Part shown: positions 23,351 to 63,900 of the stretch, in pieces | Numbering within the stretch: position 1 is the stretch's first letter | Layout of the letters: each line of letters opens with the position of its first letter | Assembly: GCA_949358305.1 (NCBI GenBank) | Contig: OX442314.1 | Location: 53,825,369-53,889,368, forward strand | Origin: Strigamia acuminata | Taxonomy: Eukaryota > Arthropoda > Chilopoda > Geophilomorpha > Linotaeniidae | Reading direction: 5' to 3' | DNA: 64,000 nt | The notes under the pieces: model-generated | What the model saw: the letters and a program-made list of their open reading frames with translations, nothing else | Database searches by the model: none | What the model was told of the DNA's origin: nothing | Made by a program: the position numbers and the translations under genes

Positions 23351-23528
23351 TGTCGCGCTCAACTCTAACCGTCGCTAACTCGTGGGTTGATTACTTAATT
23401 CGACTAACTCACTACCGCTTTACTCAAGCGGTTTACCCAAAGAAATGATTACACAGATATAAAAGGTAAAATATAATATAGATTTATTCTGCGGGGCAAT
23501 GTACAGATATATCTTATATATATATATA

Positions 23529-25599: not shown

Positions 25600-26475
25600 T
25601 ATAAAGGGTAAGTAAAAGGTGAATCGGAATGGGTGATGGGAATGGAAAGGTAAAGGTAAGATGAAAGCTGGCTGGAATCGGCGAGGTCGTCTGTTGTCTC
25701 GTGCGTGTCCAAGATGGCGTCCTCGTTGTAGCAACGTGATGTCGTCTTGGGCCGGCGTGGCAATATGGCGTCCTCGGCTCGTCTCTGGCTGGTCCTTCGG
25801 GCTCACGCTGGTCGGGCGCGAGTGAATGCTTAGTTAAAAGGCTTACTTCGGGCTGTTGTCTAGGTTTTTGTGTGGTGTCCGGCGATCACACAGCGGCGGA
25901 CTCTTCTGGTTCCCGGCGGTCACACAGCGGCGGGAACGCTCGTCGTGGTTTTACTGCAGTTTAGGCTTGTGCGACCGTTTGTCTGCACAACTCGCTAAAC
26001 TGGAGTGGTTTTTACTATTTCTAGCTGGTGTGCTAAAATAGTGTGGTAATCTTATCTCGCAGGTTACTCTGCGGAGTTTGACACTGACCAAACGTACTCA
26101 CGGTAAATTGTCCTTTGTCCTCGGTCAATCCCAGTATATTTACTTGGGCCTGATCTTGTAGGACGACGGGTTTACGTGTGTTTCTCGTTTGATGGTTGTG
26201 TTGGTTCTGCCCGCTCAGTGCAAGGCACATTCCTTTGCACAAAGCGGGGTTGACAGGTGACCGGAATCACCCAATGGTGGGGTGGACGAGCCATCCCCAC
26301 TCCCTCAGGGCAGACGCCTGTCCATTGACTAGATGTCAATGCACTGAGGGAAGGGAGACGCGCTTGCGGCTCCCCTTACACCCGAAACGAGGTCACGAGA
26401 GAAACTCTTCGTTGACCCCGGTCCAGTCGGGTCACAACACTTCCCCCTCCGAGCTCAGACCGTGGGGCTGAGCGA

Positions 26476-29400
26476 TCACTTCTTTCCTGGGGGACCCGAC
26501 ACTGAGTCCGTCACCTGGGCGTAACTCACTCCAGGGACAGGCGGTTGAGTGCCGGGTGGCGCGGGTAGATCGCCTACTAGCGCCGAGGACCGATCTCGGG
26601 GGTCCTCATGCTCCGTAATGAAGCATAATGCATGGCCGTCAACTGGCTCATGCGGGGCACGCGTCCTCTCGTGCAACCAAACGCTCGGGATGTAGGCGGA
26701 GAAGCCGGTGTTCGTATGCCGGATGGCATTGGCTTCCGTTGGCGTCACTGGCGCACGGTGGGCTCTCAGCAACCTCTGGTGGAAGATGAGGTCTTTAGTC
26801 TTCCGTATCTGGTTGTGGAGCCAGATGAAGACCGATTTGCCTTTGTCCCGCTGCGCGAGGATAAACCTCCTGGTCGCCGTCGTCATCGACAGATGGGGAA
26901 ACTCGTCGATGATTCGCCCATAATAGTCTGGTGGAGGCGGTGCCGGCTTCGGCTTCTGGGTGGCCGCGGGAATCACGGCTTGCGTCGTTGTCGCCGCTCG
27001 GGCCGGTGAGGTCCCGGGCGGTGTCGGCTTCGTTTGCTCGACGGACCTGACGGGTGGCGTTCGGCACAGCAAGCGCTTTGGTTTACCCGCCACTTCGAAC
27101 AGGGCGGGTCCTTGCGGGGATATCTCCGCAGGCATCGGTGGCGGAATCGGAACTCCGCTCGTCGGCGAGATCACCATGTCTACATCCTCTGCCGATTCTT
27201 CCGTCTGGATGGTCAAGGCGCGCAGTTGTTGGGTAGGCGCCGCTGTCCAGGTGGCGGAGGTGTAACGAAACGCCGTGCTTCGCAACTTGTACCCCTCGAA
27301 TTCGGGGTTTACCACATCCCTGGTTAGCTCGTACCGAGTCAACACAGGGTCGGGCAGAATGGAGCTCCACTCTGCGAGGAGTGCACGGGGAACCTGTACA
27401 CCCTCTCTGTCCACGACAGACCATGCGGCCATCGCCTGACGCCCTTCTCCGAAGAGTGCTGGGGTTAGCAGCTGCATCATGACCTTGGTCAATGATAGCT
27501 GTAGGCTGCGACGATTCACTGGATTCGATCGCTCTGAATCCGCAGTGAAGGCGCACGAGAGCTTACTCATCATCGCCGTTGCCCATTCGATGAAATATCG
27601 CTGGGCTTGATCCACACCTCGCAAGGCGGGTGCGGAGACTCTTGGGTCTTCCATTACGAAGCGAAACGCTGAGAGCTCGGAGATCGTCGGGTTGGCGGCT
27701 TCTCTCGCGAGTCGCGCTTCTTCGTCTCGCCTCTCGAAGAACAGGGCCGAGGAACCGGGTCGGGGTCGGCTCGGCCTGTAAATGTCGGTCAAATTGGCTC
27801 GACATTCCTGCATAATGCTCTGTCCAACGGGGAGAGGGACTGAGCGGTCGGTGGGTAAATCCGGCGGATCGCTCGAATTCAACAACGACGGTGGCGGCAG
27901 GTCCGGAGGCGGCTGCGTCTTGGTCGGCAGCGTCGGCGTCGACAGCGGTGGTGGTGGCAGCGTCGGCGGTGGTGGCGTCTCCGTCGTCTGCACCCCAGTC
28001 ATTGCGACTTGGGGCGCCGAGAGATGTTGTTCGGAGCTCGAAGGCTGCACGATGGCGGTTGGCATGCCATCGGGTCGTGGTCGCGAATTTATGTAGTCTG
28101 CGAGCCACCTTGCCACCTCGTGTGGGGTCACCTTTCCGTCGGTGACAACACCCATCTTCCTGGCGTGTTTCATCGCGGGATCGAAACGTGTCAGTTTCGT
28201 CCGCTTCATCTGAGTCAGAATCTCGCGAAGGTCCCGCGTATCTGCCGCTGGGACGTGTCGCTCACCTGACTGGCTACCACTTCGTCGACCCGCTCTCTTG
28301 GAGATGTAGGCGGGTTCGGGGATGGGACGGCCCCGAGCTTCGCACCTCGCGAAGTATCGCTCCTTGCGATCTTTTTTCCGCTGCTCGCGATGAGTCAGCG
28401 GACGTCTAGAAGTGCTGGGACGAGAGACTCGCTCTTCGTCACCAGACATCCAAACCTCCTTGCACTCCTTACCGTCTTTAATCTGACGGTTTACGAAAAT
28501 TCGCGGTCGGGAATACTGCGAAGGGTCACGCACCGTACTAGTGGATGGCCCAGCTTCGTTGCCTTCAGTCGTGTTTTGAGTGACACGCTGCTTCTTGGCT
28601 GTCACCGGGGAACGCGACTGGCTGTTCCCGGCGCCTTTGGAGCGCTTGCGCTTCCGCGGGTAGCTGCTTTTGGGCCCCAAAATCCCCAGGTGGTGGAGCT
28701 GCCACATCTCGGCTTGGGACGTTAAAGTTCCCATCCGAGGTCTCCACTGGGGCGTACTCTCTCCCAATCGCAGCCTCTCAAACCACAGATGAATATCATC
28801 CGCGGTCATCCCCTCGTTTTGGAGGATGCGCTCGGCCACTGCCGCAGCGGTATCCACCAGCTGTTGTCTATACTGCTGATAGATGGCCTCACGGGCCTCT
28901 TCTGTCTCGGCTGCTCGCCACGCATGCAGCACGTGTTCCTCCGCCGGAGTGCCAGTGTACTGACTTGACAATCCGGGGTGGAAAATTGGCGATTTCGGGT
29001 CCTCGTCACGAGCTAACTCTGTGGCGATGCCTTCGCGCATCCCCTCCGGGAACGTGTCCAGGAGCGTACAGTCTCGTACCCAACGTCGGGCGATGCATCG
29101 GGAATGTAGTATTCGCAGGCGCCAAGGGTCGGCGTCTTCGCCGAAACATCGTCGGTAAAATTCGGGCAGCGCGCCTCGAAATATCCCGCCACGAGCGATG
29201 CAAGCGGGGTCTAATGGTCCCCATGTTTTACGTAATGCCATCTGGAAGGATGGAGAAATAAACAATTAATAAAAAAGTTAATATTTAAATACGTAGATAA
29301 ATGGTTGGTTTCGAGGGACGTTGCCGATACGTGCAGCCGTCCGTCGAGACCGATTCCTGTCTATCGGTGCAAACGTAGGACGAATTGTCCCTCGTCGGAT

Positions 29401-30180
29401 AGAAAAAAAAGAAGTCATCACGTAAAAAATCTGTCTCATGTCCAAAACGCACAGCGAGACGGAATCGAGCCTTTAATCCGGATTTTTATCATCAGATTTT
29501 ACTTCACATTAATTCTAACGTTAATTAGAACATTACTAATAATTAAATTAATAATTATCCGTCATTCGTAAAGAGAATTCGTCGGGTGTAAATTATTACT
29601 AAAATTGCACAATAAATGTGCTTGTCGAAATTTTATTAAATAAATAAATCTAATAAAGAATTATTCCGAAGTCGGACTTTGTCTAATTTTTTTTAAAAAA
29701 GTTAAAGTCAAATTAAATTTATCCAACACACCGAAAAATTCATCGTACGAATGTTAAGTTGCATCAATTCGATGCGTCAAATTACTTGTGGAGAAAATTA
29801 TTCTTTTACAGAATATTCTCCCCTTGTCATAAAATTATTTATGGCTCGAGCCCATTGTCTCGCTCGTGACTCAAGTCATGAGGAATTTTCGAGACGCGAG
29901 GCGACGTGAAGTCTGCGCTCGCACCCCGAAAACAAATTAACAAGGAAAAAATACGATCGTGTGAGCGATCGCGGTTAATAATTAATTATACGCTATTGTG
30001 AGTGCAAAGCACTCATGTCAGGTATTAGTCAACAAAATTTCTTCTTCAGCAGCACGGAACTAGTTCTCATGTGCCGATGCCGACTTCTACCTGATCGGGA
30101 TGGACTTGGTTTACATCGCGGTCCCAGTTTTCCTCGTCCTCGTGCTCTATGGCCAGCACGTCGTTCTCTTCCTCGTCCAT
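26476..30180 (-). CDS. Third ORF of Gypsy element 1, spliced, unknown family (951 residues)
   Basis: Predicted exon 1 is 30091-30180 (30 codons, start MDEEENDVL, acidic, with ENWDRD). The intron is 29242-30090 (donor CAG|GTAGAA, acceptor CATCCTTCCAG|). Exon 2 is 29241-26476 (921 codons plus stop), joined in phase 0. Blocks shared with element 2 are: a start with TWGPLDP, then WRPRMGTLTSQAEMWQLHHL (about 31-215), then AAWSVVDREGVQVPRALL (about 634), then HQRLLRAHRAP...HERT...EDP (about 850-900) and a C-terminal SYA..KK. Between them are a basic stretch (PRKRKRSK, likely nuclear signal), Arg/Ser-rich and Pro-rich low-complexity parts. There is no signal peptide, transmembrane segment, furin site or zinc knuckle, so it does not look like an envelope. 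The position (pol to 3' LTR) is where env sits in errantiviruses. Function unknown. A nuclear or RNA-binding accessory role is a guess. Confidence 0.75.
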
Positions 30181-30814: not shown

Positions 30815-33800
30815 TCAGGAGTTTCTCCTGTTTCCCCCCCCGACCAAAATTGGATCCGGAACGGATTCAACTATCTCGTTTACCGGAGGTGAAGGGGCGT
30901 CGAAATACTCCTCGTTGTCACTTGGCGGTGCTTGTTCCGACTCGCCAGCGAACGTATCGACGATTTGGCCGTCAGTTTTAGACTTGACTTGGCCCTTGGC
31001 CCACATTTCCTGCGGGAATTCCGGAATGTACGGAGTTAACTCTCGTACCTGGATCGACTTTTGCTCGGTGTTGTCCTCGAGCTTGCGTAATTTATACGCG
31101 TTACCGCCATGCTTGCCGATGATTACATACGGACCATCTCTCTTGTCGGCCAAGCTGGCGGTGATCCCTCTCGCTGCATTTGAGAGGGTGTGTGCATCTT
31201 TCCACACCAAATCATTGATCTCGAAATTCACGAATTTTCCACCGCTTTTATCTTGTAAAATGCGGTCGCGCATGTTAAAAATGTGCGCCATCATATGCTT
31301 GTATGTGTTCGAAATTGTTTGCTCTAATTTATACACATACTCATGTGGTTTCTCTGGGTCCACCACATTTACCGACTCTGCCACTCGTGGGTCCCAAGGC
31401 ACTCGTAGCTCTCGGGCGAAGTTGAGGTAGGCCGGAGAAAAATCTCTCGTCCTCGAGACTGTTGTTCGTATGCTGAACGCGATCTCCCTCAAGTATTCAT
31501 CCCACCTATTGTGGATGTCAGTGAATATACTTAATGCATATTTGATATCCCTGTTGAGTCGCTCAACGGGATTTGTTCTAGGATTGTAGGTCGAAGTATG
31601 TGACGCCACAATCCCGAATTTTTTACAAAACTTACCCCAAATTTTCGAGATAAATTGGGGTCCGTTATCGGATATTATTTTACGTGGAAATCCGTAACGT
31701 AACGCCACGTCGTAGATACATTCAACGATTTTCTCTGCTGAAGGTCTAGCGACGGCGTACAACTCGGGCCAACGAGTTGCCACGTCCATTATAACGATAA
31801 TGTACGCATTTTTATTTCCCGTAACGGGTTTTGGGCCCATCACATCGACACTTAAACAATCAAAAGGCGCGTAAGGCCCTAAGAAAATAGTTTCGAATGG
31901 TGATTTACTCCTCGGCTTGCACGCTTGACATCGCTGACATTGGTGGACAAAAAGAGCAATATCTTTTTTCATCCCTGTCCAGTGAAAAAGCTGTGTAGCA
32001 CGATAGAGTGTTCTGCTTACTCCCGCATGGCTCGCAAGCGGGTGCCCGTGTAACAACCACAGCACGCGACCGATTAAGGAAGCAGGTATTACTACCTTTA
32101 CTGCGGTGTCCGATTCACTCAAGTCATCTTGGTGATTTGGGTGATGTTTCACTAAAAGGCCGTCATCCAATAGGTAATCTATGGATTCGTGTGCATAACG
32201 ACGCTTCTGCCTTCTGGTTAAGTTGGGCGGATAATTTCCTGTCAGTACGAATCTAGCTCTGTCCTGACATTTTTTGTCTAATTTTTGTTGCACAATTATT
32301 TCCTCCCTCGTCGGGGGATTGCTTCGCATTTGCTTGCCGACATGAGCGTGGAAGGCGCTTAGTAGCGGGTCATTTATTCTCCGCTCTAGCTTAAATTCCC
32401 TCTTTGCATCTGGGTAATTGTCAGCAGCTGGTTGGTATAACCGCGTCCAGAAACCACAGAATTTTACATCTGCCGGAGACGCGGTAGGAATTTCATTCAT
32501 CTTCCTTAAATCCCAACGGTGACAACTCGTAGGGCAATAAATGATGCGGGAGTCATCCTCGCCATCATCGTCAGCGTCGATTGGATCTGACACTGGTGCC
32601 CGTGACAGAGCGTCAGCCACGACGTTATATTTGCCGGGCTTGTATTGAATGGTCAAGTCGCATGCCATCAGTTCTAACTGCCATCTGGCTAGTCGACCGG
32701 CTGGCTCTTTTAATTTCATCAGCCATTGTAACGCTTGATGATCTGTGTGGACCACAAATTTGGTATATTCGAGATAATCTCTGAATTTCCTTATGGCCCA
32801 CACAACGGCCAAACACTCCAACTCGGTGGCATTGTAATTCTTTTCAGCGCCTTGGAGTTTGCGACTTATAAACATGCACGGCAGGTCTTGTTCGACTCCG
32901 TCGCGCACGTGTGTTTGGAGCAACGCCGCTCCTAACCCAACTCTGCTGGCGTCCGTGTGTAATATGAACGGCCGGTTTAAGTCGGGTAGAGGCATTACGC
33001 CGACTTCCGTCAGCATCCTCTTTATTGCATTAAATGCGATGTTGCACTCATTTGACCATACAAATTCGTTTTCATTCTTCAGGAGGTCGGTAACTGGGGC
33101 TGCCACTTCAGCTAGGCCCGGTAGCAACCTGCCGAAGAAGTTTATCATTCCCATAAACCGTTGGACACCTTTAACGTCCTCGGGTGGTGGGAAACGATTA
33201 ATCGCATCGATTTTTTCGGGGCCAATAGCTAAACCATTGACTCCAATGCGATAACCCAGGAAGGCAAGCTCCTTTCGACAGAACTTGCTCTTGCCCGGGT
33301 GAACGTGTAACCCAGCTTTTGCCAGCCGGGTGAGCACTTGGTCGATATGCTCAATGTGCTCTTCGAATGTTTTGGAGGCAATAACTATGTCATCTAGGTA
33401 TGCCCACACAAACTGATGCAGGATATCACCCAATACGCTTTCGATTAGTCTCTGAAAGGTACTGGGAGCGTTCACTAAACCAAATGGCATGACGTTGAAC
33501 ATCAACCGTCCAATTGGCGAGTAAAATGCTGTTTTTAGCTTATCCTCTGGCCTCATCTCAACCTGCCAGTATCCCTTCGACAGATCCATCGTCGTAACCC
33601 AAGAAAAGGGGCTAAGCTCTCTCAAAATGGATTCGATAGACGGCATCTGTATGGGATCTATCTCTGTCACCGCGTTTAATGGGCGGTAATCAATGCATAG
33701 GCGTGGGTCCGAGCCCGGGCGCATCACGAGCACAACTCGCGTCGCGTATTCTCCCTGGGCCTCGGAGACAATGCCACTGTCTAGCATTTCTTGGCACATT

Positions 33801-34729
33801 TTTTGCACTATTTCACGTTTTTGCGGGTTCATTCCCTTATACGCAACTCGTATAGGTTTATTATCCGTCAATTTAATTTCGTGAATAGCCCTATTCGTTC
33901 GGCCCGGTTTTTTCGACAGGATCCCCTCATATTTAAGTAGGACCCTTCGTAGGGCTGCCGCTTCGTTTAATTCTAAAGCGGCGTCGGCGACAAGCGTTTC
34001 CACTACATTGTCCCGTTGCAATTCTGTTACGAATGCTTTAAAATCGTAGTCTTGAACAAATTTCTTTAGGCCTTTCTCCCACTGTGTCTTGTCGGCCGCT
34101 TCTTTTACAAGAGCTGGTGGCACGACAATTGCGGGTCTTTCCTTATCATTTCTGATATAATTCCAAGATTTCGTTATTGGATTTGGTTGTATTTCCATTG
34201 ACGCCATGAGGTCTAAGCCCAACAGAAAAATTCTGTCGCATGTGGGCAGGACCAGGAAAGGGTGCTGTTCTACCCCTCCGAGCCACTCCATGGTCAATAA
34301 TATAACTCCTTTTGGACGCGCCATTCCGTTGGCGGTTTTTAGACGTATATTTTTATTAACGCCTTTTATCTTATCGGTGAGACCCAATGATGCTACTATG
34401 TCTTCGGAAACGAACGAGCGATCTGCTCCCGAGTCTAGCAGTCCCATAATTTTTTCACGTTCTATTGTCATGGGCAACATGCATAGGCGGTTGGTGTATT
34501 CGACCGCCACGTTGCACATGAAAACACGAAATTCTTCTGTGTCTTCGACTACTTGAGGTAATTCTTCAAGCAGTAGGTTCGGTTCTTCCGCCTCAGCCTC
34601 AGCGTTTGCGGTAATTACCTGCAAAGCGTTGTTGGCCCTGTCTTGAATTTGGGCGTTAGCTATGTCACTACCCATTTCTTTGACTGGTGGCGGCTTATCG
34701 AACCCTTTGTTAAACCCCTTCTTCTTCAT
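30815..34729 (-). CDS. Gypsy element 1 pol (protease-RT-RNase H-integrase)
   Basis: 1304 codons from ATG 34729, 23 nt after the gag stop and in another frame. Protease LLDSGADRSF is at about residue 95. RT carries WVTTMDLSKGYWQ and YLDDIV (about 443). RNase H has HTDAS and DHQALQWL. The integrase has an HHCC zinc part (about 895-935), and its D, D, E are seen in DVMGPK, SDNGPQF and NPVERLNRD (about 963-1056). A GPY-like DGPYVIIG follows. The order RT-RH-IN is that of Ty3/Gypsy. The frame ends at 30815, just after a run of eight Gs (minus strand; 30834-30841). Another frame from there to 30658 encodes a tail whose end (NPFIKGGKVVGKK) matches the end of pol in element 2. Hence a one-base change or a frameshift at the G run. 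Confidence 0.93.
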   Translation of the reverse strand: MKKKGFNKGFDKPPPVKEMGSDIANAQIQDRANNALQVITANAEAEAEEPNLLLEELPQVVEDTEEFRVFMCNVAVEYTNRLCMLPMTIEREKIMGLLDSGADRSFVSEDIVASLGLTDKIKGVNKNIRLKTANGMARPKGVILLTMEWLGGVEQHPFLVLPTCDRIFLLGLDLMASMEIQPNPITKSWNYIRNDKERPAIVVPPALVKEAADKTQWEKGLKKFVQDYDFKAFVTELQRDNVVETLVADAALELNEAAALRRVLLKYEGILSKKPGRTNRAIHEIKLTDNKPIRVAYKGMNPQKREIVQKMCQEMLDSGIVSEAQGEYATRVVLVMRPGSDPRLCIDYRPLNAVTEIDPIQMPSIESILRELSPFSWVTTMDLSKGYWQVEMRPEDKLKTAFYSPIGRLMFNVMPFGLVNAPSTFQRLIESVLGDILHQFVWAYLDDIVIASKTFEEHIEHIDQVLTRLAKAGLHVHPGKSKFCRKELAFLGYRIGVNGLAIGPEKIDAINRFPPPEDVKGVQRFMGMINFFGRLLPGLAEVAAPVTDLLKNENEFVWSNECNIAFNAIKRMLTEVGVMPLPDLNRPFILHTDASRVGLGAALLQTHVRDGVEQDLPCMFISRKLQGAEKNYNATELECLAVVWAIRKFRDYLEYTKFVVHTDHQALQWLMKLKEPAGRLARWQLELMACDLTIQYKPGKYNVVADALSRAPVSDPIDADDDGEDDSRIIYCPTSCHRWDLRKMNEIPTASPADVKFCGFWTRLYQPAADNYPDAKREFKLERRINDPLLSAFHAHVGKQMRSNPPTREEIIVQQKLDKKCQDRARFVLTGNYPPNLTRRQKRRYAHESIDYLLDDGLLVKHHPNHQDDLSESDTAVKVVIPASLIGRVLWLLHGHPLASHAGVSRTLYRATQLFHWTGMKKDIALFVHQCQRCQACKPRSKSPFETIFLGPYAPFDCLSVDVMGPKPVTGNKNAYIIVIMDVATRWPELYAVARPSAEKIVECIYDVALRYGFPRKIISDNGPQFISKIWGKFCKKFGIVASHTSTYNPRTNPVERLNRDIKYALSIFTDIHNRWDEYLREIAFSIRTTVSRTRDFSPAYLNFARELRVPWDPRVAESVNVVDPEKPHEYVYKLEQTISNTYKHMMAHIFNMRDRILQDKSGGKFVNFEINDLVWKDAHTLSNAARGITASLADKRDGPYVIIGKHGGNAYKLRKLEDNTEQKSIQVRELTPYIPEFPQEMWAKGQVKSKTDGQIVDTFAGESEQAPPSDNEEYFDAPSPPVNEIVESVPDPILVGGGNRRNS

Positions 34730-34752: not shown

Positions 34753-37700
34753 TTATTTCTTCGCCGCCTGCGCTGACTCGTTTTTTGACTCGTTTTTTGC
34801 CATGGCGAGTTTAATCTCTGCCATCTGCTTCATTATTGCGTCAAATTTAGCGTCTTCTTTCGCTGTTCTTGGGCACTCATTGGAATAGTGACCCGGTTGG
34901 TTACACTTGAAACAACGAATATTTGATTTGTCTCTTGGGGCTTCAGTCGATTTTTTCTTTTCAGGGTCTGCTTTCGACGGTGGCGTGTAATTTTTCCGAA
35001 AATACTTCGGAATTCGGCCGGCATTTGGTTTTAACCTGGCGCGAAATTCTTCTACCGCTCTATCTCGATGGATGAGATGTACTAGCGGTCCTTCCTCATC
35101 GCAACCCGTTGATAAGGTATCGCGATAGCTTCGTATTTCTTCGTCCGTCGAATAATCGTCTTTTTCTTCTTTTTCGTCTGATTTTCCGGCATCTTGTCCG
35201 GCTTCCTCCCCCTCCTTGACCTCCTCCAGTGTCGCTTGCATGGCTGACGCTGTCGGTGCCTTTTTAGGGGCGGCCAAAGGGTTGGAAGGCAGCGTGGATG
35301 TCAGTTTATTTTTTATTTGCAAACCAACGCTAGCTTCTGCCAGCTCCATTATACCGCTAAGATATTCAGTAGGGCGCATAATCTTATCTGTCGCCCCATA
35401 TCTTTCCGCACTCAACTTGAGACGTTTTGCGGTTGCTGCTTTCTCCGCTTCTGGTAAAGCGGAATAATACCTCTTCTCGATATCTATCGTGTTCTCGAAC
35501 AGGAAGGCGCTCATCTCCTCGTAGCTGCCTCCTGTCGGTGCCCTTTCTTCAAGTAACACCCGTTGCGAGTACTCCGACAAACCGCCGAGAAAGAAAAGGT
35601 TGAATCCCGTGGCATGAAATTCCATCGGGGCCTTTTCGAACAACAATCTGGCGCGAATGTCGTAATCCATTATGGTTTCACCAGGCATCTGGCGAAGACC
35701 TCGCATCTTTCGGCTCACCTCTTCGGGTGTCTCGCCGTAGCGCAGGTCGAATCTCATTAAAAAGTCGTCCCAATTGACGCCTTTCAATCCTTGGTACCAC
35801 TCACGTGCCGAGCCTGTCATTAGCTCGACAATACCGTGGGTGAGCATGTCTCCTACGGTGGCTTTAGTGGCAGTCTTAATTCGAATTACTTCGTCAAGGA
35901 AGCGATCTCCCGCTTTCCATGACCCGTCGAAACGGTTCTGAATATAAAATTGCCACCTAATATTCCCGGTAACGCTCATGGTGTCTCGTCGGGAGACAGC
36001 GTATTTTTTCTTTACGCGGTCGCCAGTGCTACGATTACGATCGTTTCGTTTGCTCAGATCGATTCCCTCGGCCTTCAACGAGCCAAGTAGTGCTCTTCCA
36101 AGCTCTCCCATCGTATACTGCCGACCCGTCGAATCGGTAAACGCGCTTTGTCGGGGAGGGTCCTGAAACTCCTCCCGTCGGTGGTCGCTATTTTCCGATC
36201 GACGTCGTTTCTCTCTATCGCGCGGAGAGTTGGATCTCTTCCGGCGATTACTTGATTTATCCTTTCGTCTGTCGTCGTTGGATGAGGGGTCGGAGCTGGG
36301 GTCGGAAGACGGTGAGCGGCGTGGCGGGTTGCGCCGTGAAGAGTTTGACTCTTTCCGGCCCCTACGACGGTCGTCACGTTCCCTTTCCCTGCGTTCATCG
36401 CGTTCTCTTTCCCTTCGTCTTTCTCCAGAACCTCTCTCCGAATCGTGATGACTGGGTGCATTTGACTCCAGTCCATCTGACGACGAATCACTATTTCCGT
36501 AGCGATAATATTTCGGTCTTTCATCGCGTTTGCCTTCTTCTCGCGAAGAGGTGCGATCATGCGATTGTCTCCTTGACGACTCGTCGTCTTTAAGGATGGG
36601 CACTGGTTGTTGCCACTCAGTCCCTTGTGGATTATCTTGCTGTTGGCTTGTGAGAGCTTGCTCTTCATTTCGCCTAGCATTATTAGCGTTGATTAACCGC
36701 GTTATCGCATTATTTGTGGCTGAATCGAGAGCTTGCATGCGGGGCCGAGTTTGTTGTTCTCTGGCCGACGCATCTCTCTTGCGCGGAGTAGCTGGTGTTG
36801 CCCTCTCCGGCTGGGGTTTGGGTTTGGCCTTCGGCGTGCGCTTTGGGTCTCCCTCTAGGCTCTCGTCGGACAGCTCGGATGAACTGACCTCTGGTTTGCG
36901 AACGGATTTCGGGTCATCTCGTCGCAATCTGGCCATAAATGCTCGCTCTGCTTCTTGTTGCGAGTGGAAAGCATATCGATGTGCTCTCAGGGCTCGGTCA
37001 ACTATTTCTACCTCCTCGGGAGTAGTCGGATTGGGCTGGGTTCTGCCGTACTCGAGAGCTTGCGCTTCTCTTTCCGCCAGCTTCCTCCGTCTCTCGCGAA
37101 TGGCTTGTCGAGCCTCATTCTCTGCATCCGCTTCAAATTGAGCGGAATCAACCAATTGTTGAGCGTGTGCACCTTCAACAATGGTGATTTGTGGGGATAC
37201 ACTGTGCGCTTTTAAAGCTGCACGTACGATTTGTAACGTTTCGTACACTGTAATCTTCCCCGTCGGAAGGGTGTATCTCACTCCCTCCGCTTGTGCCAAT
37301 TGCATCGCCTCAATCAAGGTGCCCGAGACGCTGTAAGGCTGGCTCGAAACACGCTTGACAGAGGACGAGTTGGACTTGTGCCCTTCAGACACTACCGAGG
37401 CTGGTCGACTGTGCGTAATTGGCGTGTCTAGTGCCGAATTAGCGGTCGTATTTGAGGCCGTCTTTTGTATCGGAGACGCTGCTTTCGGACTGCCCACCTC
37501 GGTGTCGTGCGTTAGACGAGGCGATTGGTTACGGGATAAAACCTCGTTTCCGCTCGTCTCGTCGTCACGGTTAGAACGCGGCAGTTTGGAGTGAGATTGC
37601 TCTTCACCCCGCTCTGTCTCGTCCAATCGCTGCCTCGTCTCGGTGCGAGACGGGTGCGATGCCTCTGATGCGCTTCTACGATCGGGTTTAGGCTTACGCC

Positions 37701-37836
37701 GTTTTTGCCTCGCTTCGTGCGCTGAGGCTTTGGGTAAGGGACCTCCAGATCGCAAGTGATAGTCGGCGCCTTTACGACTGCCGGCTCTCTTGTTTGCGTC
37801 GGAGTCGGAATCTGTTACTCGGGTATTATCTGCCAT
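34753..37836 (-). CDS. Gypsy element 1 gag
   Basis: 1027 codons from ATG 37836 (the frame is open back to 37863). The N-terminal half is long, Arg/Ser/Glu-rich and probably disordered. A retrotransposon capsid-like region follows (about residues 650-790, with SAREWYQGL, FLMRFDLRYGETPEE and MRGLRQMPGE). Near the end is one CCHC zinc knuckle (CFKCNQPGHYSNEC, about 975-988) for RNA binding. It would form the particle that packages element RNA. The frame is intact. The leader between LTR and ATG is about 72 nt. At over 1000 residues the gag is long for the family. Confidence 0.92.
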   Translation of the reverse strand: MADNTRVTDSDSDANKRAGSRKGADYHLRSGGPLPKASAHEARQKRRKPKPDRRSASEASHPSRTETRQRLDETERGEEQSHSKLPRSNRDDETSGNEVLSRNQSPRLTHDTEVGSPKAASPIQKTASNTTANSALDTPITHSRPASVVSEGHKSNSSSVKRVSSQPYSVSGTLIEAMQLAQAEGVRYTLPTGKITVYETLQIVRAALKAHSVSPQITIVEGAHAQQLVDSAQFEADAENEARQAIRERRRKLAEREAQALEYGRTQPNPTTPEEVEIVDRALRAHRYAFHSQQEAERAFMARLRRDDPKSVRKPEVSSSELSDESLEGDPKRTPKAKPKPQPERATPATPRKRDASAREQQTRPRMQALDSATNNAITRLINANNARRNEEQALTSQQQDNPQGTEWQQPVPILKDDESSRRQSHDRTSSREEGKRDERPKYYRYGNSDSSSDGLESNAPSHHDSERGSGERRRERERDERRERERDDRRRGRKESNSSRRNPPRRSPSSDPSSDPSSNDDRRKDKSSNRRKRSNSPRDREKRRRSENSDHRREEFQDPPRQSAFTDSTGRQYTMGELGRALLGSLKAEGIDLSKRNDRNRSTGDRVKKKYAVSRRDTMSVTGNIRWQFYIQNRFDGSWKAGDRFLDEVIRIKTATKATVGDMLTHGIVELMTGSAREWYQGLKGVNWDDFLMRFDLRYGETPEEVSRKMRGLRQMPGETIMDYDIRARLLFEKAPMEFHATGFNLFFLGGLSEYSQRVLLEERAPTGGSYEEMSAFLFENTIDIEKRYYSALPEAEKAATAKRLKLSAERYGATDKIMRPTEYLSGIMELAEASVGLQIKNKLTSTLPSNPLAAPKKAPTASAMQATLEEVKEGEEAGQDAGKSDEKEEKDDYSTDEEIRSYRDTLSTGCDEEGPLVHLIHRDRAVEEFRARLKPNAGRIPKYFRKNYTPPSKADPEKKKSTEAPRDKSNIRCFKCNQPGHYSNECPRTAKEDAKFDAIMKQMAEIKLAMAKNESKNESAQAAKK

Positions 37837-37908
37837 TTCTTGCTTTGGGTATGATGTAATCACAGGTTAGAATCAGTTATTCAACTTGATCCCGGACAGG
37901 CCCCCACG

Positions 37909-38924
37909 TGTCGCGCTCAACTCTAACCGTCGCTAACTCGTGGGTTGATTACTTAATTCGACTAACTCACTACCGCTTTACTCAAGCGGTTTACCCAAAG
38001 AAATGATTACACAGATATAAAAGGTAAAATATAATATAGATTTATTCTGCGGGGCAATGTACAGATATATCTTATATATGTATATATAAAGGGTAAGTAA
38101 AAGGTGAATCGGAATGGGTGATGGGAATGGAAAGGTAAAGGTAAGATGAAAGCTGGCTGGAATCGGCGAGGTCGTCTGTTGTCTCGTGCGTGTCCAAGAT
38201 GGCGTCCTCGTTGTAGCAACGTGATGTCGTCTTGGGCCGGCGTGGCAATATGGCGTCCTCGGCTCGTCTCTGGCTGGTCCTTCGGGCTCACGCTGGTCGG
38301 GCGCGAGTGAATGCTTAGTTAAAAGGCTTACTTCGGGCTGTTGTCTAGGTTTTTGTGTGGTGTCCGGCGATCACACAGCGGCGGACTCTTCTGGTTCCCG
38401 GCGGTCACACAGCGGCGGGAACGCTCGTCGTGGTTTTACTGCAGTTTAGGCTTGTGCGACCGTTTGTCTGCACAACTCGCTAAACTGGAGTGGTTTTTAC
38501 TATTTCTAGCTGGTGTGCTAAAATAGTGTGGTAATCTTATCTCGCAGGTTACTCTGCGGAGTTTGACACTGACCAAACGTACTCACGGTAAATTGTCCTT
38601 TGTCCTCGGTCAATCCCAGTATATTTACTTGGGCCTGATCTTGTAGGACGACGGGTTTACGTGTGTTTCTCGTTTGATGGTTGTGTTGGTTCTGCCCGCT
38701 CAGTGCAAGGCACATTCCTTTGCACAAAGCGGGGTTGACAGGTGACCGGAATCACCCAATGGTGGGGTGGACGAGCCATCCCCACTCCCTCAGGGCAGAC
38801 GCCTGTCCATTGACTAGATGTCAATGCACTGAGGGAAGGGAGACGCGCTTGCGGCTCCCCTTACACCCGAAACGAGGTCACGAGAGAAACTCTTCGTTGA
38901 CCCCGGTCCAGTCGGGTCACAACA
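37909..38924 (-). repeat. 5' LTR of Gypsy element 1
   Basis: 1016 bp, minus strand TGTTGTGACC...GCGACA, followed on the plus strand by target copy ACTT. It includes CAAGATGGCGTCCTCG-type strings at about 38196 and 38250, candidate promoter elements. It is uninterrupted at the TATATA site (about 38075-38087) where the other LTR carries the long-TIR transposon. Confidence 0.93.
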
Positions 38925-38928
38925 ACTT

Positions 38929-56793: not shown

Positions 56794-57421
56794 TGTCGTG
56801 ATTCGACTTTGTGGTTAAAAATAATAAATAATACACTCGGGAATACAATATACTTCAAATACTGCTTTATTAAAACACGCTTACTAATACAAATATAAGT
56901 TAAGATGTTTCCTGTGGTGGTCCTCGGATTCGGCTGCGAATACGAGTTGCCGCTAAACAATGGCGGATCCAATTGTTTAGTCCTACGCGTGGTCTGTGTT
57001 TGTTGTCTAGGGTATTTCCACGTGTTATTATGAACACGCGAGAATTCGCTTTCTCGTGCGAATTAAACGAATATCGTTCGGATATTTATTCTAGCGTAGT
57101 TTGGCTACGCCAAATAAATGTGGCTGTTGTACAGTTGAATGGTCAGCGGGCACCGGTCCTCGATCAATCCGTGAAACGGCCTGAAAGGTGAGGTAAATGG
57201 TGCTCTTGCTGAGATTGGTAACTGTAGTATCGTTTCCGGTCAAGCGTTGGCGTTATATATTAACCGGAAATGACGTCATATGCAAATCATTGTGATTATG
57301 CAGGCTCGCAGAAACGAGAGACTAGCCAGTCTAGTCACCGTTCCTGGCGCACTCTAGTGTCAAGAATTAATAATGAGATAATTACCACTAATTATATCTT
57401 CTGGTGATGCCGAATCACCAC
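56794..57421 (-). repeat. 3' LTR of Gypsy element 2 (inferred bounds)
   Basis: Minus strand TGTGGTGATTCGGCATCACC ... GAATCACGACA. It contains TTAATAAAGCAG (about 56860-56875), a poly(A) signal candidate in the right place. The start at 57421 is firm (purine tract adjacent). The end is inferred because the partner LTR is outside the window. Confidence 0.65.
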
Positions 57422-57648
57422 ACGTCCCTCCCCGAGAATGAACTATCGGGACCCTCTAAATAACAATGGAAAAACATCATCTCAGAAAACAAATGCTTTT
57501 ATTATAGTGAGGATGAGGCGATGAATAAAAATTATTATACACTTTAAAATTTACTATATGTTTTTAAATAAGAGAATTGCTCGTAAAGACATGATTAACT
57601 TATGACTAGAAAGGATTTTCCTTTTTACAAGAGCTATCGGAAGGTGTT

Positions 57649-60600
57649 CTATTTCTTTAGATTGTCGGCGTAGCTCGTTTTATCCTCCGAACTTGGTTTG
57701 TCCAGGTTAGGAGATGTGGTCAATCTAGACGAGTAATCCGTCGGATCCTCGCTTTCATTCAGGTAGAATCGTAGATGGCCGGGAGGCTCCAAAGGGTTTC
57801 CCGTTCTCTCATGAGCCCAAATTTGGGGTAGGAAAGGGGCCATGCCCTGGTTCGTGTGATGGATCCTTTGCGCTTCGGCAGCGCTGGTTGGCGCTCGATG
57901 GGCTCGGAGTAGTCGCTGGTGCTGGATAAACATGTCGTTTCCTGGCCCAGCTTCAATAGCCTTTTTCATCCACACGTAAAGGGAGAAGCCGCGATCCGGA
58001 GTTTGCAGCAACTTTTGCTTAGTGTCTTCGGTTAAGGATAAGCCTGGATAGTACAACGTTAGTCTCGGAGCGATCCGGGGTGGCGTTGGTTCTGGAGCCT
58101 TATCCTGCGGCTGTGGACGAAGCATCGTCGATTTGGTCTTTTTCTTCGCAAGTTGGACTGGTTTGGCCAGTTGCTCGGGAGCTTTCTTCTTATTGATAGG
58201 CGGGGGAGGAGGAGGCGGAATCGAATCTGTCGAGTCCAGGTCCTCCATGACGGTATCGGCGGCTGGAAGCGACGGAGGTGGATTCCGAATGGTAGCTCGC
58301 ACGTTTTGGTATGAGGCCTCCGGATCCGGGTCCTGGGCCACCATTTGGGCTCGAATTACGGCCGCCGAGGGTACCAGGCGCGTCCAACTGTCTACGAGAG
58401 CCGGCGGGACCTGGAAACCTTCGTGGGCCACCACGATCCAGGCCGCCACAGCAACACGTGCGTTCCGGAAGGTGGCGGCAGCTAGCAAAATCGACATCAG
58501 ATCGGTGATGGCGACCACGATCCTAGTGTTCCAATTCGGATGATTCCGGTTTTTGTTCTGCGTATATTCGATTGAAATTCGCTGAAGGTTTGTGATGACG
58601 TTCTGGATTACGTTTTGTTGGTACGAATCCATTTCGCACAAAAGTGCTCTGGCCTGCTCCACGGTTGTGACGTCCAGGAATTGTTGCAACGTTACCTCCG
58701 AAGGGTTGATTGGAGTCGAGGCTTGAACGACTGCTGGGGCTGGCAACATCGGATTGGGTCCCGTGGATGTCGTTGGCTGAGGCACAGATCTGACCAGACG
58801 TCTTGATTTTTCCGGTTCGGGCTTGTCCCAAACAATTGGAGTTCTCGTCGAAGTTGAAGCTTCGGGGATAGTTGGGAGAGGTTCGACTTTGGCTGGTCCA
58901 AAGCGAGCTTCTCGATGCTTGAGTTGTTCTTCAGAACTCAGTGTCGGTGCGCCGATTATCACTTTCTTGCGAAAGGCGCTTGGGAGGCTGACGCTAGATG
59001 TTACGCTTCCCGTCCGCGAGAGTTCCGGCTTGATGAAAGCACTTGGCGCCGTCTCTAGACTCGAGGCGGTCGAGGGAGTTGGGCGGTAGATCGGTTTCGG
59101 CTGCATTTGTTGATATTTCATGACCACCGCGAGGAGATCCGCCTGAGTATACATCTTTTTCTGCTCAGGGACCTCGTCGATAATTACTTCGTCGTTGATC
59201 TTCATCGGTTCGGGACTGTCCCGAATCGATTTGGTATCTTCGTAGCGTCTCCTATCTCGCTGTCGTATTTCCTCTTCACGATACGCTTTCCATGAACGTG
59301 CGCGACTCTCCGATCCTCTCCTTCTTCGTTCGTCTTGAAGACAGAGGTTCTCTCGTTCACGTCGGGCTTTCTCATCACGTCCACGTAGGAACTCTTCTCG
59401 GTGTCTGTTCCAAGACTCTTTGTTTTCCTCCCGCCGTCGAAAGTAATTTCTACGATAATCGTCCCAATTTTCTTGGTTCCTATCGCGTCGGTGTTGATCT
59501 TCTCGGCGGTCGGGGCGTTCGCGTACATTCTCTCTTCTACGGCTGGTTGACGGGGCGTCCCTAGATTGAAATCGCGATGTTTGTGGGGCCTCCGTTTTTC
59601 CTAGGCGAGAGAAAGCGCTTGGTTTGGCCAGGCGTTTCTTTGTCGCGGGTTTCTTACTCTGTGTGCTGCTGGAAGTGCTTGGCTTGTCCAGGCATTGTTT
59701 CTTCGCTGAGCAGCCTCCTTCGTCGTGCTCGTTGGAGAGACGTTTCTCGGCCTTCTGGCGTTTGCGACCAAAAAATCCCAAAAAATGCAATTGGTGCATT
59801 GCTCGCTGCGAGGTGATAAATCCGTGCCTCGGTCTCCAATCTGGGCGGTCGGGCCGGTCTTCGCGGATCTGTTGGAGCCAAGTCTTAATTTCCTCGGTCG
59901 AGTAACCGTCCGGCTGCAGATAATCGAAAACTTCGTCATGAGCGGTCCGCCTCACCTCCTCGTAATACGCCATATGGATTTCGTATTTTTCTTCCTCCGT
60001 TTCGGCGTCGCGCCATTGTTCGTACACTTCCCATCCCCGTTGGTCGTCTGGAAAGGCGGCTCGTATTAGTGGATTCGGGATTGGCGCCGGCGGATCCATA
60101 TTTCTTGAAATTACCGCCCGCAAAGCTGCTTGGTATTGGCGCGGCATGTAGTGGATCAACGTTTGCTGGCTGGACCAGTAGCGGCTGATCGCACGAGATA
60201 ATAAAAGGCGAATTTTCCATGGTTCAAAGTTGACCGATTCTTCGAGCGCTTGTCGGAACAGTATGGGGATGACTTCTCGCCATAAGCTGCCTGCGGAAAC
60301 TCTTTTCGGGTCGATTTGTCCCCACGTAGTGCGATATCCGTCCTAAATATTAGAATATTAATGAATATATTAGGATCGTTGATTAATTTGTCATATATTT
60401 TTTTTTTAGAGATTCTTTCGTCTAACACAAGATGGCGTCATGGTCGGCCATGTGCTTTTCGACCACGTGTCTTGAAGTTACTTTTTCTTTCGGTATTTGA
60501 TTAATTTTGACAATTTGTCACTTAAAGTTAAATTATTTCTTCGTTCGTGGTCAGTCCACGAACTTATTTCGTATTTTTAATTATTGATAATTGAATTTTT

Positions 60601-60766
60601 TCTATTTTTTACTTACGTCGGGTTGGGCATCGGGTTCATTGGGTTCGTCCCAATTTCCCTCTTCGTTGTTTACGACGATTTGTAATAAATCCACTTGATC
60701 TTCGTCGTCATCCTCGGAAGCGTTGTTTACGGCCCGTTCAATTTCTTTCTTCCAATCATTTCTCAT
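57649..60766 (-). CDS. Third ORF of Gypsy element 2, spliced, unknown family (947 residues)
   Basis: Predicted exon 1 60617-60766 (50 codons, starts MRNDWKKEIERAV, then acidic SEDDDEDQ and EGNWDEP). The intron is 60343-60616 (GAC|GTAAGT ... ATATTTAG|). Exon 2 is 60342-57649 (897 codons plus stop), phase 0. Exon 2 opens with TWGQIDPKRVSAG. Then come AETEEEKYEIHMAYYEEVRR, WRPRHGFITSQRAMHQLHFL (about 100-210), AVAAWIVVAHEGFQVPPALV (about 660), HQRLLRAHRAP (about 858-868) with WAHERTGNP and ESEDPTDYSS, and a C-terminal SYADNLKK. A basic GRKRQKAEKR follows the first block as in element 1. The middle is Arg/Glu/Asp-rich, with a run of nine prolines. Only about a third of residues agree with element 1 by eye outside the blocks. 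No membrane segment or known enzyme motif was seen. Confidence 0.75.
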
Positions 60767-60984: not shown

Positions 60985-63900
60985 TTATTGTTTTCCGACG
61001 AGTTTCCCGTCTTTTATGAACGGGTTTGGCTTGTGTCGACGCATACCGTATATTTTATCAGGTTTGAGGATTCTTGTAGTCTTATTTTTGTTTGATTGCT
61101 TTCCTTTTTTAGGAGATTCTTCGACTATTTCCTCCCTCTCCGAAATCTCATCCGGGGCGTCGGCCGCTTCGTGTAACTCATCTTGAACTAAATTGGTTGG
61201 GCCAGTTTGTTCATCTAAAAACATGTCGCGAATAATTGGATTTTGCGCTGGTTTCGTCTGATATTCCGTCCAAGCCTCTTGAGGAAACTCAGGTAAGTAT
61301 GGAGTTAATTCTCGGGCGTGGATCGATCTAAAATTAACGTTGTCTGCCAATCTTTTTAGCTTGAAAGCGTTTCCGCCGTGGGCTTCGAGTATGACGTACG
61401 GGCCGTCGCGTTTGTCTGCTAGGCCTGCGTGGATCCCCTTATCGGCGCTGGACTGAATATGTGTGTCTTTCCAGACGAGGTCATTGACTTTAAAATTGCA
61501 GAAGGGCCGATCCTTTCCAGCAATGCTAATACGATCTCTCATGTCGAATATGTGAGACATCATGTGTTGATAAGTGGCCGAAATTATTTGCTCCAATCTA
61601 TCGACATAAATATGAGGCTTCTCGGGATCGATTTCCAGTATTTCCTCCGGTATTCGCGGGTCCCAGGGCACTCTGAGTTCCCGAGCGAAGTTTAGAAACG
61701 CGGGAGAAAATTTGCGGTTCCTCGAGATCGTCGTGCGGATGCTGAAGGCAATTTCACGAAGATATTCATCCCAGCTGGAGTGAACATCGGTGAAAATTGC
61801 CAGCGCATATTTTATGTCGCGATTTAACCTTTCGACGGGATTGGCCCGTGGATTATAGGTTGATGTGTATGATGTCTCGATGTCGAATTTTTTACAGAAG
61901 TCTTTATACAAATTTGACGCAAACTGTGGTCCATTATCGGAAATTAGTTTCCGAGGGAATCCGAAATGAAGCGCCACTTCGTACAAACATCGAATGATTT
62001 TCTGCTTAGTTGGTCTCTCCATTGGAAAGAGCTCGGGCCATCCGGTCGCGACATCCATGATTACTAAAATATATTTGTTTTTATTGGATGACGTGGGTTT
62101 TGGGCCCATTAAATCCACGCTCCAGCAGTCGAAGGGTGCGAAGGGGCCGAGTGAGATTCTTTCGTAATTCTTGGGCGTCCTAGGTTTGCACGCTTGGCAT
62201 CTGGGGCAGTGGTGAATGAAACGAACAATATCTCGGGTCATTTTGGGCCAAAAATAGAGTTGGTTCGCACGGTAGATTGTTCTGGCCACTCCAGAATGTC
62301 CGGCGAGTGGGTGTCCGTGGACCATCCACAGAAACCTTGTTAGCAGACTCCTGGGTATAACGACTTTCATCGAAGTACCTGTCTCCGTCAGATCATCGCG
62401 GAAATTCGGGTGGTGTTTTAGTAGAAGTCCATCCTCGATTAAGTACGTGGAGGCTTCTCTTTCGAATTCTTCGCGTTGGATTTCGTCGAAATTCTTGTCG
62501 GGAAATTTTTTATCTGTGATGAAGTCTCGATAAGTTTTACAGAAGTCGTCTGTCATTTGGGCGGCTATTAATTCGTCCCTGGTGGGCGGCTTGCTGTTCG
62601 TCCCCTTGCTTACGTGGGCGACGAATGCTCGAACGTACTTGTCGGAGATTCGAGGTTCTATCGTTAGCTCGTACTTTGGGTGAGCGTCCTTGACAGACTG
62701 GTACGCTCGGAGCCAATAATTGTAATAATTTTGGTCTCCTGACTCGAGTTTCTCCTTGGGTAATTCGTTTAGCTTCTTAAATTCCCATTTTCGAACGGGG
62801 TTCGGACAGTAGAAGAGGCGTGAGTCGTCCTCTCCGCAGTCGGTCTCGTCTTCGGGGTCTGAAGCTGGGGCTCGTGAGAGGGCGTCTGCCACGACGTTGA
62901 ATTTTCCGGGTCGGTATTCAATGATTAAGTCACAAGCCATTAATTCTAGCTGCCAGCGAGCCATTCTTCCGGACGGTTCCTTCAACGCCATTAACCATTT
63001 TAGGGCTTCGTGGTCGGTTTGTACGTTGAACTTGGTAAATTCCAGGTATGGTCTGAATTTTCGGATTGCCCAGACAACGGCTAGACATTCTAACTCTGTC
63101 GCATTATAATTCTTTTCGGCTGCTTGTAATTTCCGGCTGATGAACATCGTCGGGACCTCTAATTCTACTCCGTCGATGTCATGCCTTTGAAGCAACGCAG
63201 CACCTAGGCCAATTCGACTGGCGTCGGTGTGAAGAGTGAATTCTCGATTAAGATCTGGTAGGGGAATCCGTTTTACATCGATCAACATTTGTTTTATTTT
63301 GTTAAACGATGTTTCGCAGTGGTCAGTCCACTCGAAATCTTTATCATTGCGTAACAGATCTGTGATGGGCGCCGCGACGTCTGCCAAATTTGGGAGCATC
63401 CGATTGAAGAAATTCACCATGCCCATGAAACGTTGGACTCCTTTTACATCTTCCGGGGCGGGGAACTGGCTAATGGCCTGGGTCTTTTTCGGGTCGATGG
63501 ATAGGCCACCTGTTCCGACTGTGTAACCTAGGAATGCCAATTCTTTGCGGCAAAATTTACTTTTCCCTGGATGGATGTTTAGTCCGGCCTTTGTGAGTCG
63601 CTCCATGACGTCATTCACATGCATCAAGTGGTCTGTAAAGGTCTGAGAGACTATTACTATGTCGTCAAGATAAGCCCACGCGTATTTGTGTAAGGCATCG
63701 CCGAGAACTTTTTCTATTAATTTTTGAAAGGTGGCGGGTGCGTTTACTAACCCGAAGGGCATTACATTAAACATCAGTCGACCCTGTGGTGCCCAAAAAG
63801 CTGTTTTCTCCTTATCCTCTTCCCGCAATTCAACCTGCCAGTAACCCTTGGACAAGTCCATGGTCGTGACCCAGTTAAATGGGGCGAGTTCTCGTAAAAT

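What the first reader, a model, noticed from the sequence alone, without database searches (positions are those of the whole stretch)
26476..30180. A third, non-envelope gene of about 950 codons conserved between two divergent Gypsy elements
Seen: both elements carry a long minus-strand gene between pol and the 3' LTR. The N-terminal block (TWG-x-(I/L)DP, WRPR..TSQ..MxQLHxLG), the AAWxVV..EG(V/F)QVPxALL-like block and the C-terminal HQRLLRAHRAP ... HERT ... ED(P) block are shared, while linkers diverge strongly. Pol is about 70 per cent identical by eye, so the third gene evolves much faster, as env does, but it has no signal peptide, membrane segment or furin site. It has basic nuclear-type signals instead. 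I know no family with these blocks. It may be a new accessory gene of a Gypsy lineage.
Basis: partly seen in the sequence, partly recalled or inferred. Interest (0 to 1): 0.9.

Follow-up and report, generated by a model that had tools for sequence, protein, structure and literature searches.

The report
Spliced non-envelope gene of Gypsy elements
Two related Gypsy jumping elements in a probable arthropod genome carry a third gene of about 950 codons that matched no envelope or other protein family in the libraries searched, changes far less in its protein than at silent sites between sister copies, and likely makes a nuclear protein that would help the element's unspliced RNA leave the nucleus.

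Summary
[quoted passage not shown] Sister family B2 gives a natural control: 40 sites match its 221-nt GT-AG intron, and at least 3 copies lack exactly that intron. No stop in 45 of 49 (E1-type) and 49 of 51 (E2-type) best-scored copies; whole-gene dN/dS 0.09-0.18 in 10 of 14 pairs (4 saturated). No significant match in Pfam, NCBIfam, PHROGs, PDB or the protein database; but the database holds no close pol relative either, so that absence is weak. ORF3 is not unusually fast: E1-E2 identity 28-30%, gag 22%, pol 64%. A KRKR/KRQK basic cluster stands in one column of 14 of 14 proteins. The closest working parallel is CERV of nematode Cer1, a spliced, non-envelope third gene needed to export unspliced genomic RNA. 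I propose that ORF3 works like CERV; it lacks CERV's cysteine loop, zipper and export motif, so membership is not claimed. Function is untested and both AlphaFold models were poor.

The parts
37909..38924 (-). E1 5' LTR, 1016 bp, TG...CA; flanked by AAGT (38925-38928), repeated after the 3' LTR (23347-23350) as a 4-bp target-site duplication
37889..37906 (-). E1 primer-binding site, two bases inside the LTR; resembles the 3' end of tRNA-Pro (recalled, not tested)
   Evidence: sequence
34753..37863 (-). E1 gag (Retrotrans_gag and CCHC zinc knuckle)
   Evidence: Pfam
30815..34729 (-). E1 pol (protease, RT, RNase H, integrase); frame breaks off short of the C-terminal tail seen in E2
   Evidence: sequence
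30091..30180 (-). E1 ORF3 exon 1 (predicted), 30 codons, acidic (13 D/E, 1 K/R)
29242..30090 (-). E1 ORF3 intron (predicted), 849 nt, GTAGAA...TTCCAG, phase 0
   Evidence: by analogy with B2 intron loss
26476..29241 (-). E1 ORF3 exon 2, 921 codons plus stop
28657..29226 (-). ORF3 N block (residues 6-195; TWG...WRPR...TSQ...QLH.LG)
28642..28656 (-). conserved basic cluster RKRKR (predicted nuclear localisation signal)
   Evidence: same alignment column in 14 of 14 rows
27262..27705 (-). ORF3 middle block (residues 513-660; A.W.VV..E...P.AL)
26572..26946 (-). ORF3 C block (residues 766-890; HQRLLRAHRAP, five invariant His, EDP.D.SS.L)
26440..26453 (-). E1 polypurine tract
   Evidence: sequence
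25600..26439 (-). E1 3' LTR, first part (99.9% identical to the 5' LTR side in an 844-column match)
23351..23524 (-). E1 3' LTR, last part, beyond a nested insertion (boundary approximate)
60985..63996 (-). E2 pol, cut by the window edge
60617..60766 (-). E2 ORF3 exon 1 (predicted), 50 codons, acidic (17 D/E, 4 K/R)
60343..60616 (-). E2 ORF3 intron (predicted), 274 nt, GTAAGT...ATTTAG, phase 0
60428..60460 (-). intronic block 29 of 33 identical between the E2 intron and one B2 intron (L041)
   Evidence: 0 of 500 shuffles
57649..60342 (-). E2 ORF3 exon 2, 897 codons plus stop
59752..59763 (-). E2 conserved basic cluster KRQK
56794..57422 (-). E2 3' LTR, 629 bp

Best explanation
E1 and E2 carry a conserved third gene, ORF3, in the envelope position, predicted to be spliced from two exons, and it likely encodes a soluble nuclear regulator that would bring the element's own unspliced RNA out of the nucleus, as CERV is needed to do for the nematode Gypsy element Cer1. 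Shown by sequence: gene order, open frames in most best-scored copies, low dN/dS between sister copies, precise loss of the ORF3 intron in three copies of a sister family, a basic cluster in one column of all 14 aligned proteins, no significant match to an envelope, enzyme or capsid family. Predicted: splicing in E1 and E2 themselves, nuclear entry, mostly helical blocks (from low-confidence models). Inferred and untested: RNA binding (perhaps by the C block with five invariant histidines) and export of the unspliced genomic RNA, which the lineage would need because its RNA carries at least one intron that can be removed.
For: Position: between pol and 3' LTR in E1 and E2; downstream of pol in B2 copies L039 and L041/L043, their 3' LTR not read; in A2 (L042, L044) only ORF3 was read. 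Intron: L041 has exon 1, a 221-nt GT...AG intron and exon 2; L039 has the same exons fused without a base more or less, with the end of pol upstream; 3 genome sites match the fused junction pattern, control 0; those three copies differ from each other by 2-3 of 2571 nt and are open for 904 codons; 40 sites match the intron (exons beside them not checked). Selection: whole-gene dN/dS 0.088-0.182 in 10 of 14 pairs. No stop in 45 of 49 and 49 of 51 best-scored copies, E1 and E2 themselves included. Basic cluster KRKR/KRQK in 14 of 14. Parallel with CERV (PMC10309623: abstract, passages and sections 4, 9 and 15 read): ORF in env position, product of a spliced mRNA, candidate NLS KRKK, three structured domains with flexible linkers, highly divergent like GAG, required for export of unspliced RNA. 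ORF3 shares position, splicing, a candidate NLS, three conserved blocks with diverging linkers and gag-like divergence.
Against: No transcript, protein or localisation data. CERV's other marks were not found: no Leu-x6 zipper in the four rows printed, no export-signal consensus in three of those four (one match, in L039), neither at a column shared by 9 or more rows, and no cysteine column in all rows. CERV's N-terminus is shared with gag; ORF3's exon 1 lies after pol and has its own ATG. Sequence comparison with CERV was not possible. Three near-identical copies without the ORF3 intron exist, so that intron is not needed for amplification. Structure prediction failed (mean pLDDT 36.7 and 41.2). 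A basic cluster is a weak predictor. The short C-terminal tail shows dN/dS above 1 in three pairs (21-42 codons). E2-type rows have a borderline hydrophobic window and furin-like matches.
Confidence: 0.38

Rival explanations
1. ORF3 is an extra structural or assembly protein: it would join Gag in the particle (a tegument- or scaffold-like role) rather than act in the nucleus.
For: Divergence is of the same order as gag in all three pairs compared (ORF3 28.3, 28.0, 49.5%; gag 21.8, 25.8, 44.1%). Conserved blocks, helical in the low-confidence models, joined by Pro/Ser/charged linkers.
Against: No profile similarity to the elements' own gag (hhalign probability 0.3%); CCHC in 0 of 14 rows and no late-domain motif shared by most rows (PPxY 1, YPxL 5, PTAP 0 of 14); conserved basic cluster.
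Confidence: 0.22
2. ORF3 is a nuclear transcription activator or silencing suppressor: the acidic exon 1 would act as an activation region and the basic parts would bind DNA or a host silencing factor.
For: Exon 1 is strongly acidic (13 of 30, 17 of 50, 19 of 48 residues D/E) with Trp in all three families read; basic cluster; retroviral Tax/Tas-type proteins occupy similar places (recalled).
Against: No DNA-binding family found; no expression data; low dN/dS does not look like an arms race with a host silencing factor.
Confidence: 0.2
3. ORF3 is a degenerate or unrecognised envelope that allows cell-to-cell spread.
For: Envelope position and predicted splicing; E2-type proteins have one borderline hydrophobic window (9 of 14 rows) and R-x-K/R-R matches occur in 8 of 14 rows.
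Against: The window lies in a block whose counterparts in E1, A2 and B2 stay below 1.6; exon 1 is acidic, not a hydrophobic signal; no Pfam envelope match.
Confidence: 0.05
4. ORF3 is a captured host or viral enzyme, as the GDSL and DEDDy ORF3s of bdelloid rotifers are, too diverged to recognise.
For: C block has many invariant polar residues, among them five His, and an EDP.D.SS.L motif.
Against: No significant Pfam, NCBIfam, PHROG or PDB match; no Walker A, HExxH or GDSL motif in any of 14 rows.
Confidence: 0.12

Closest known systems
CERV of Cer1 (C. elegans Gypsy/Ty3 element), PMC10309623 (abstract, passages, sections 4, 9, 15 read)
   Same: Third gene between pol and 3' LTR; product of a spliced mRNA; not an envelope; candidate NLS; several structured or conserved parts with flexible or diverging linkers; diverges like gag; no homologues recognised outside its lineage.
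   Different: CERV is 517 aa with five exons, shares its N-terminus with gag, has a potential leucine zipper, a Cys-rich loop and an export-signal candidate; these were not found in ORF3 (about 950 aa, two exons, own ATG). Sequence relation could not be tested.
Non-envelope ORF3s of bdelloid rotifer LTR elements (GDSL esterase, DEDDy exonuclease), PMC5408684 (abstract and first part of Results read)
   Same: Non-envelope third gene downstream of pol.
   Different: Those were recognised as enzymes by HHpred; ORF3 here has no significant family match, though no HHpred library was available.
sORF1/sORF2 accessory proteins of the Drosophila MDG1 group, PMC11952523 (abstract, sections 7 and 10 read)
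   Same: Accessory genes of envelope-less Gypsy elements with low dN/dS; sORF1 was seen in a subnuclear compartment.
   Different: About 110 and 70 aa, upstream of gag in that group; no splicing was seen; sORF2 is a membrane protein.
Additional ORFs (aORFs) of plant LTR retrotransposons, PMC7264820 (abstract read)
   Same: Extra ORF between pol and 3' LTR kept in all or most copies of many elements.
   Different: Plant elements; roles largely undetermined; no sequence comparison was made.
Env of insect errantiviruses (gypsy type; recalled)
   Same: Position and spliced expression (recalled).
   Different: No hydrophobic N-terminus and no consistent membrane segment; no Pfam envelope match.

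Membership tests
Ty3/Gypsy LTR retrotransposon | gag, then protease-RT-RNase H-integrase, between near-identical LTRs with target-site duplication and polypurine tract | tested here: met
   (E1); E2 is cut by the window edge, its gag read from L046
CERV-type RNA export factor | third gene in env position | tested here: met
   E1 and E2
CERV-type RNA export factor | made from a spliced mRNA | tested here: met
   in B2 by precise intron loss; only predicted in E1 and E2; no RNA was read
CERV-type RNA export factor | nuclear localisation signal (candidate) | tested here: met
   KRKR/KRQK in one column of 14 of 14 rows; pattern only
CERV-type RNA export factor | N-terminus shared with gag | tested here: not met
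   exon 1 with ATG lies between pol and exon 2; a further upstream exon cannot be excluded
CERV-type RNA export factor | leucine zipper, export-signal consensus, four-cysteine loop | tested here: not met
   none at a column shared by 9 or more of 14 rows (one export-like match in L039); no cysteine column in all rows
CERV-type RNA export factor | sequence homology with CERV | not tested
CERV-type RNA export factor | needed for export of unspliced genomic RNA | not testable with these tools
   needs cells
Envelope glycoprotein | signal peptide and transmembrane anchor | tested here: not met
   acidic exon 1; hydropathy of 1.6 or more only in E2-type rows, 9 of 14, in a block not so elsewhere; Pfam none; no dedicated signal or membrane predictor was run
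GDSL / DEDDy ORF3 of rotifer elements | catalytic motifs, family match | tested here: not met
   GDSL 0 of 14; no Pfam match; the DEDD residues were not searched for as such
sORF2/FAST-like fusogen | short (63-107 aa) membrane protein | tested here: not met
   exon 2 alone is 856-954 aa in the 13 full-length rows; size range from PMC11952523 section 10
second Gag | similarity to gag or a zinc knuckle | tested here: not met
   hhalign probability 0.3%; CCHC in 0 of 14

The most novel reading that the evidence does not exclude
ORF3 founds an unrelated class of retroelement-encoded RNA export regulators: Gypsy elements of arthropods would have independently put a Rev/CERV-like nuclear protein where others carry an envelope, with a spliced intron kept as part of the switch between genomic RNA and ORF3 mRNA.
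Probability: 0.27. Interest if true: 0.82.

Novelty: new variant of a known kind. Interest (0 to 1): 0.62.

Why it matters
Third genes of Gypsy elements are usually assumed to be envelopes or are left without a function. Among the papers seen here Cer1 CERV is the one with a shown role in RNA export (sORF1 of Drosophila 412 is nuclear, role unknown). A large, selected, spliced third gene without envelope features in another animal group would show that this arrangement is not a nematode oddity. The natural set (many young copies without stops; copies with and without the intron) makes the question directly testable.

Tried and rejected
Envelope: no hydrophobic N-terminus and no consistent membrane segment. 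Gag duplication: no profile similarity. Known enzyme or domain: Pfam on all 14 rows gave one sub-threshold match in one row (E 0.06); PHROGs nothing, NCBIfam one sub-threshold match (two proteins each); PDB by sequence one match at E 0.45, by profile none at E<=1. The padloc library was not run. Protein database: residues 780-921 of E1 ORF3, 184 candidates, none at E<=0.001; 14-row alignment, 7996 candidates, none at E<=0.1. Control with E1 pol: 411 proteins at E<=1e-100; the 120 listed have 30-44% identity over part of the query, so the database lacks close kin of this lineage and the ORF3 negatives are weak. Viral contigs: nothing confirmed with ORF3 or pol. Structure: two AlphaFold jobs, poor; Foldseek on the second, no match at E<=0.001 in PDB or viral models, uninformative with such a model. 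Odorant-binding-protein search as a test for an insect host: no hit, but the control rang nowhere, so it says nothing. Papers: eight answered searches, of which I saw the listings and abstract beginnings; none of the listed papers was seen to describe this ORF3. Only open-licence PMC papers are covered; Repbase is not.
Full report
What is there. On the minus strand the window holds one complete Gypsy element, E1, and the 3' part of a second, E2. E1 has a 1016-bp 5' LTR (37909-38924), gag (34753-37863, with Retrotrans_gag and a CCHC knuckle), pol (30815-34729, protease to integrase), the third gene and a 3' LTR that is split by a nested insertion of about 2.1 kb; a 4-bp duplication AAGT flanks it. 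The LTR pair matches at 99.9% over 844 columns and 98.4% over 186, so the insertion is young. E2 has pol (cut at the window edge), the third gene and a 629-bp 3' LTR; its gag lies outside the window.

The third gene. Exon 2 is open for 921 codons in E1 and 897 in E2. Similarity between the two begins at a 3' splice-site-like sequence in each (TTCCAG|ATGGCA; ATTTAG|GACGGA). Upstream lies a short acidic exon that ends at a GT donor, phase 0: 30 codons and an 849-nt intron in E1, 50 codons and a 274-nt intron in E2. Of the 38 copies L001-L038 (L001 and L009 are E1 and E2 themselves) my motif found this exon in 35, with the in-phase GT printed at the same place in 34 (the printed list for L038 was cut); L004 and L019 did not match the motif and L027 was not processed. 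A2 copies L042 and L044 were not read far enough upstream.

Natural evidence of splicing. A third family, B2, was found with a degenerate pattern for LLRAHRAP whose last codon excludes E1 and E2 (146 matches, 0 for the reversed control; 100 listed). Copy L041 has exon 1, a 221-nt GT...AG intron and exon 2; copy L039, which has the end of pol upstream, has the two exons fused with nothing added or lost. The fused junction pattern occurs at 3 sites in the genome, a lower bound because variant junctions would be missed; the three copies differ by 2-3 of 2571 nt and are open for 904 codons (its printed 905 counts the stop). 40 sites match the intron (the exons beside them were not checked). Simplest reading (inference): the intron was spliced out of a pol-containing RNA that was then reverse-transcribed, and the product multiplied. 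This also shows that the intron is not needed for amplification.

Abundance and constraint. The genome (237.5 Mb) holds at least 184 places with the C-terminal motif: 146 pattern sites plus the 38 copies L001-L038, all of which carry the excluded codon. Of the best-scored E1-type copies 45 of 49 lack a stop, of E2-type 49 of 51 (only the best of 2168 and 3160 first-look candidates were scored, which favours intact copies). I compared 14 pairs among 14 copies by the Nei-Gojobori method. In four pairs, between families, silent sites were saturated and gave no whole-gene ratio. The other ten gave 0.088-0.182; two of them (E1 against A2) have dS near 1.4 and are rough. In those ten the N block gave 0.04-0.22, the middle block 0.015-0.10, the C block 0.02-0.10 where computable (5 of 10), the linkers 0.12-0.45. 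The last 20-42 codons gave 1.3-2.0 in three pairs, too few sites to weigh. Several E2-type copies are mosaics: L009 and L015 are nearly identical in the N block (dS 0.024) yet saturated in the C block, which points to recombination and makes single-ratio figures approximate.

Speed. Between E1 and E2 pol is 64% identical over the shared part, ORF3 28-30%, gag 22%. For E1-B2 ORF3 is 28.0 and gag 25.8%; for E2-B2 49.5 and 44.1%. ORF3 thus evolves like gag, not faster.

Features. In a 14-row alignment (L045 lacks the N-terminal part) the C block is best kept, with five invariant histidines. A KRKR/KRQK cluster stands in one column in 14 of 14 rows, at the end of the N block. There is no Walker A, HExxH, GDSL, CCHC or C2H2 motif in any row; late-domain-like motifs occur in few (PPxY 1, YPxL 5, PTAP 0 of 14). 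E2-type rows have one borderline hydrophobic window (9 of 14 rows), and R-x-K/R-R matches occur in 8 of 14; E1 has neither. Between the E2 intron and the L041 intron a 33-nt stretch is 29 of 33 identical, 0 of 500 shuffles reaching it, although silent sites in the exons are saturated between these families.

Relatives. Pfam, NCBIfam, PHROGs and PDB give nothing significant. The protein database gives no ORF3 relative, but pol of E1 finds relatives listed at only 30-44% identity, so the lineage is hardly sampled there and absence is weak evidence. The host is probably an arthropod: 54 matches to the Chitin_bind_4 cuticle family, 0 of 14 control genomes ringing (that this family marks arthropods is recalled).

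How it most likely works. The nearest experimental parallel is CERV of Cer1 (PMC10309623; I read the abstract, passages and sections 4, 9 and 15). CERV is encoded by a spliced mRNA in the envelope position, is nuclear, highly divergent like GAG, has a candidate NLS and three predicted structured domains joined by flexible linkers, and a stop mutation leaves no unspliced genomic RNA in the cytoplasm. ORF3 shares position, splicing (shown in B2, predicted in E1 and E2), basic cluster, block-and-linker build and gag-like divergence. It lacks the gag-shared N-terminus, the zipper, a shared export consensus and the cysteine loop, and the sequences could not be compared. I therefore propose that ORF3 works like CERV, without filing it as a CERV. 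RNA binding and export are inferred.

Limits. No expression data; both structure models are poor (mean pLDDT 36.7, 41.2) and the fold searches say nothing. The count of pol copies with and without ORF3 was asked eleven times and never answered. More distant ORF3 families in this genome were not excluded. Novelty rests on the listings of eight answered searches of open-licence papers; Repbase was not available.

Noticed in passing
L039, L048, L049 versus L041: A small lineage of B2 elements has lost the ORF3 intron exactly at its GT-AG borders (pol read upstream in L039 only); three near-identical copies were found.
   Followed up: yes
60428-60460 and the intron of L041: Conserved 33-nt intronic block (29 of 33 between families) near CACGTG and holding GCCATCTTG; the motif GCCATnTTG occurs twice in the 5' LTR and twice in the 3' LTR of E1 (11 in the whole window, both strands).
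   Followed up: partly
L009 versus L015, L018, L026, L028: E2-type copies are mosaics: N block and first linker close, C block saturated at silent sites; points to recombination between elements.
   Followed up: partly
about 30815-30860: E1 pol frame ends before the C-terminal tail that E2 has; similarity to that tail goes on in another frame after a G run (mutation or sequence error).
   Followed up: no
23525-25598: Insertion nested in the E1 3' LTR with terminal inverted repeats (23525-23817 / 25313-25603, 96%) and an internal inverted repeat 24265-24804; probably a non-autonomous DNA transposon.
   Followed up: no
11432-16666: Plus-strand open frame of 1744 aa (stop to stop) with knuckle-like motifs by eye and weak integrase similarity, perhaps a BEL/Pao-type element.
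   Followed up: no
48306-52891: DIRS-like element by eye: reverse transcriptase plus a Dam methyltransferase Pfam match in one 1046-aa frame.
   Followed up: no
4185-5132: Open frame of 315 aa made of C2H2-like zinc fingers in tandem, with repeated DNA units.
   Followed up: no
L044 and L042 (family A2): E1-like family, ORF3 65% identical to E1; the motif of L044 is by eye the commonest among the 100 sites listed. Exon 2 begins with ATG here as in E1, so exon 2 might also be translated alone.
   Followed up: partly
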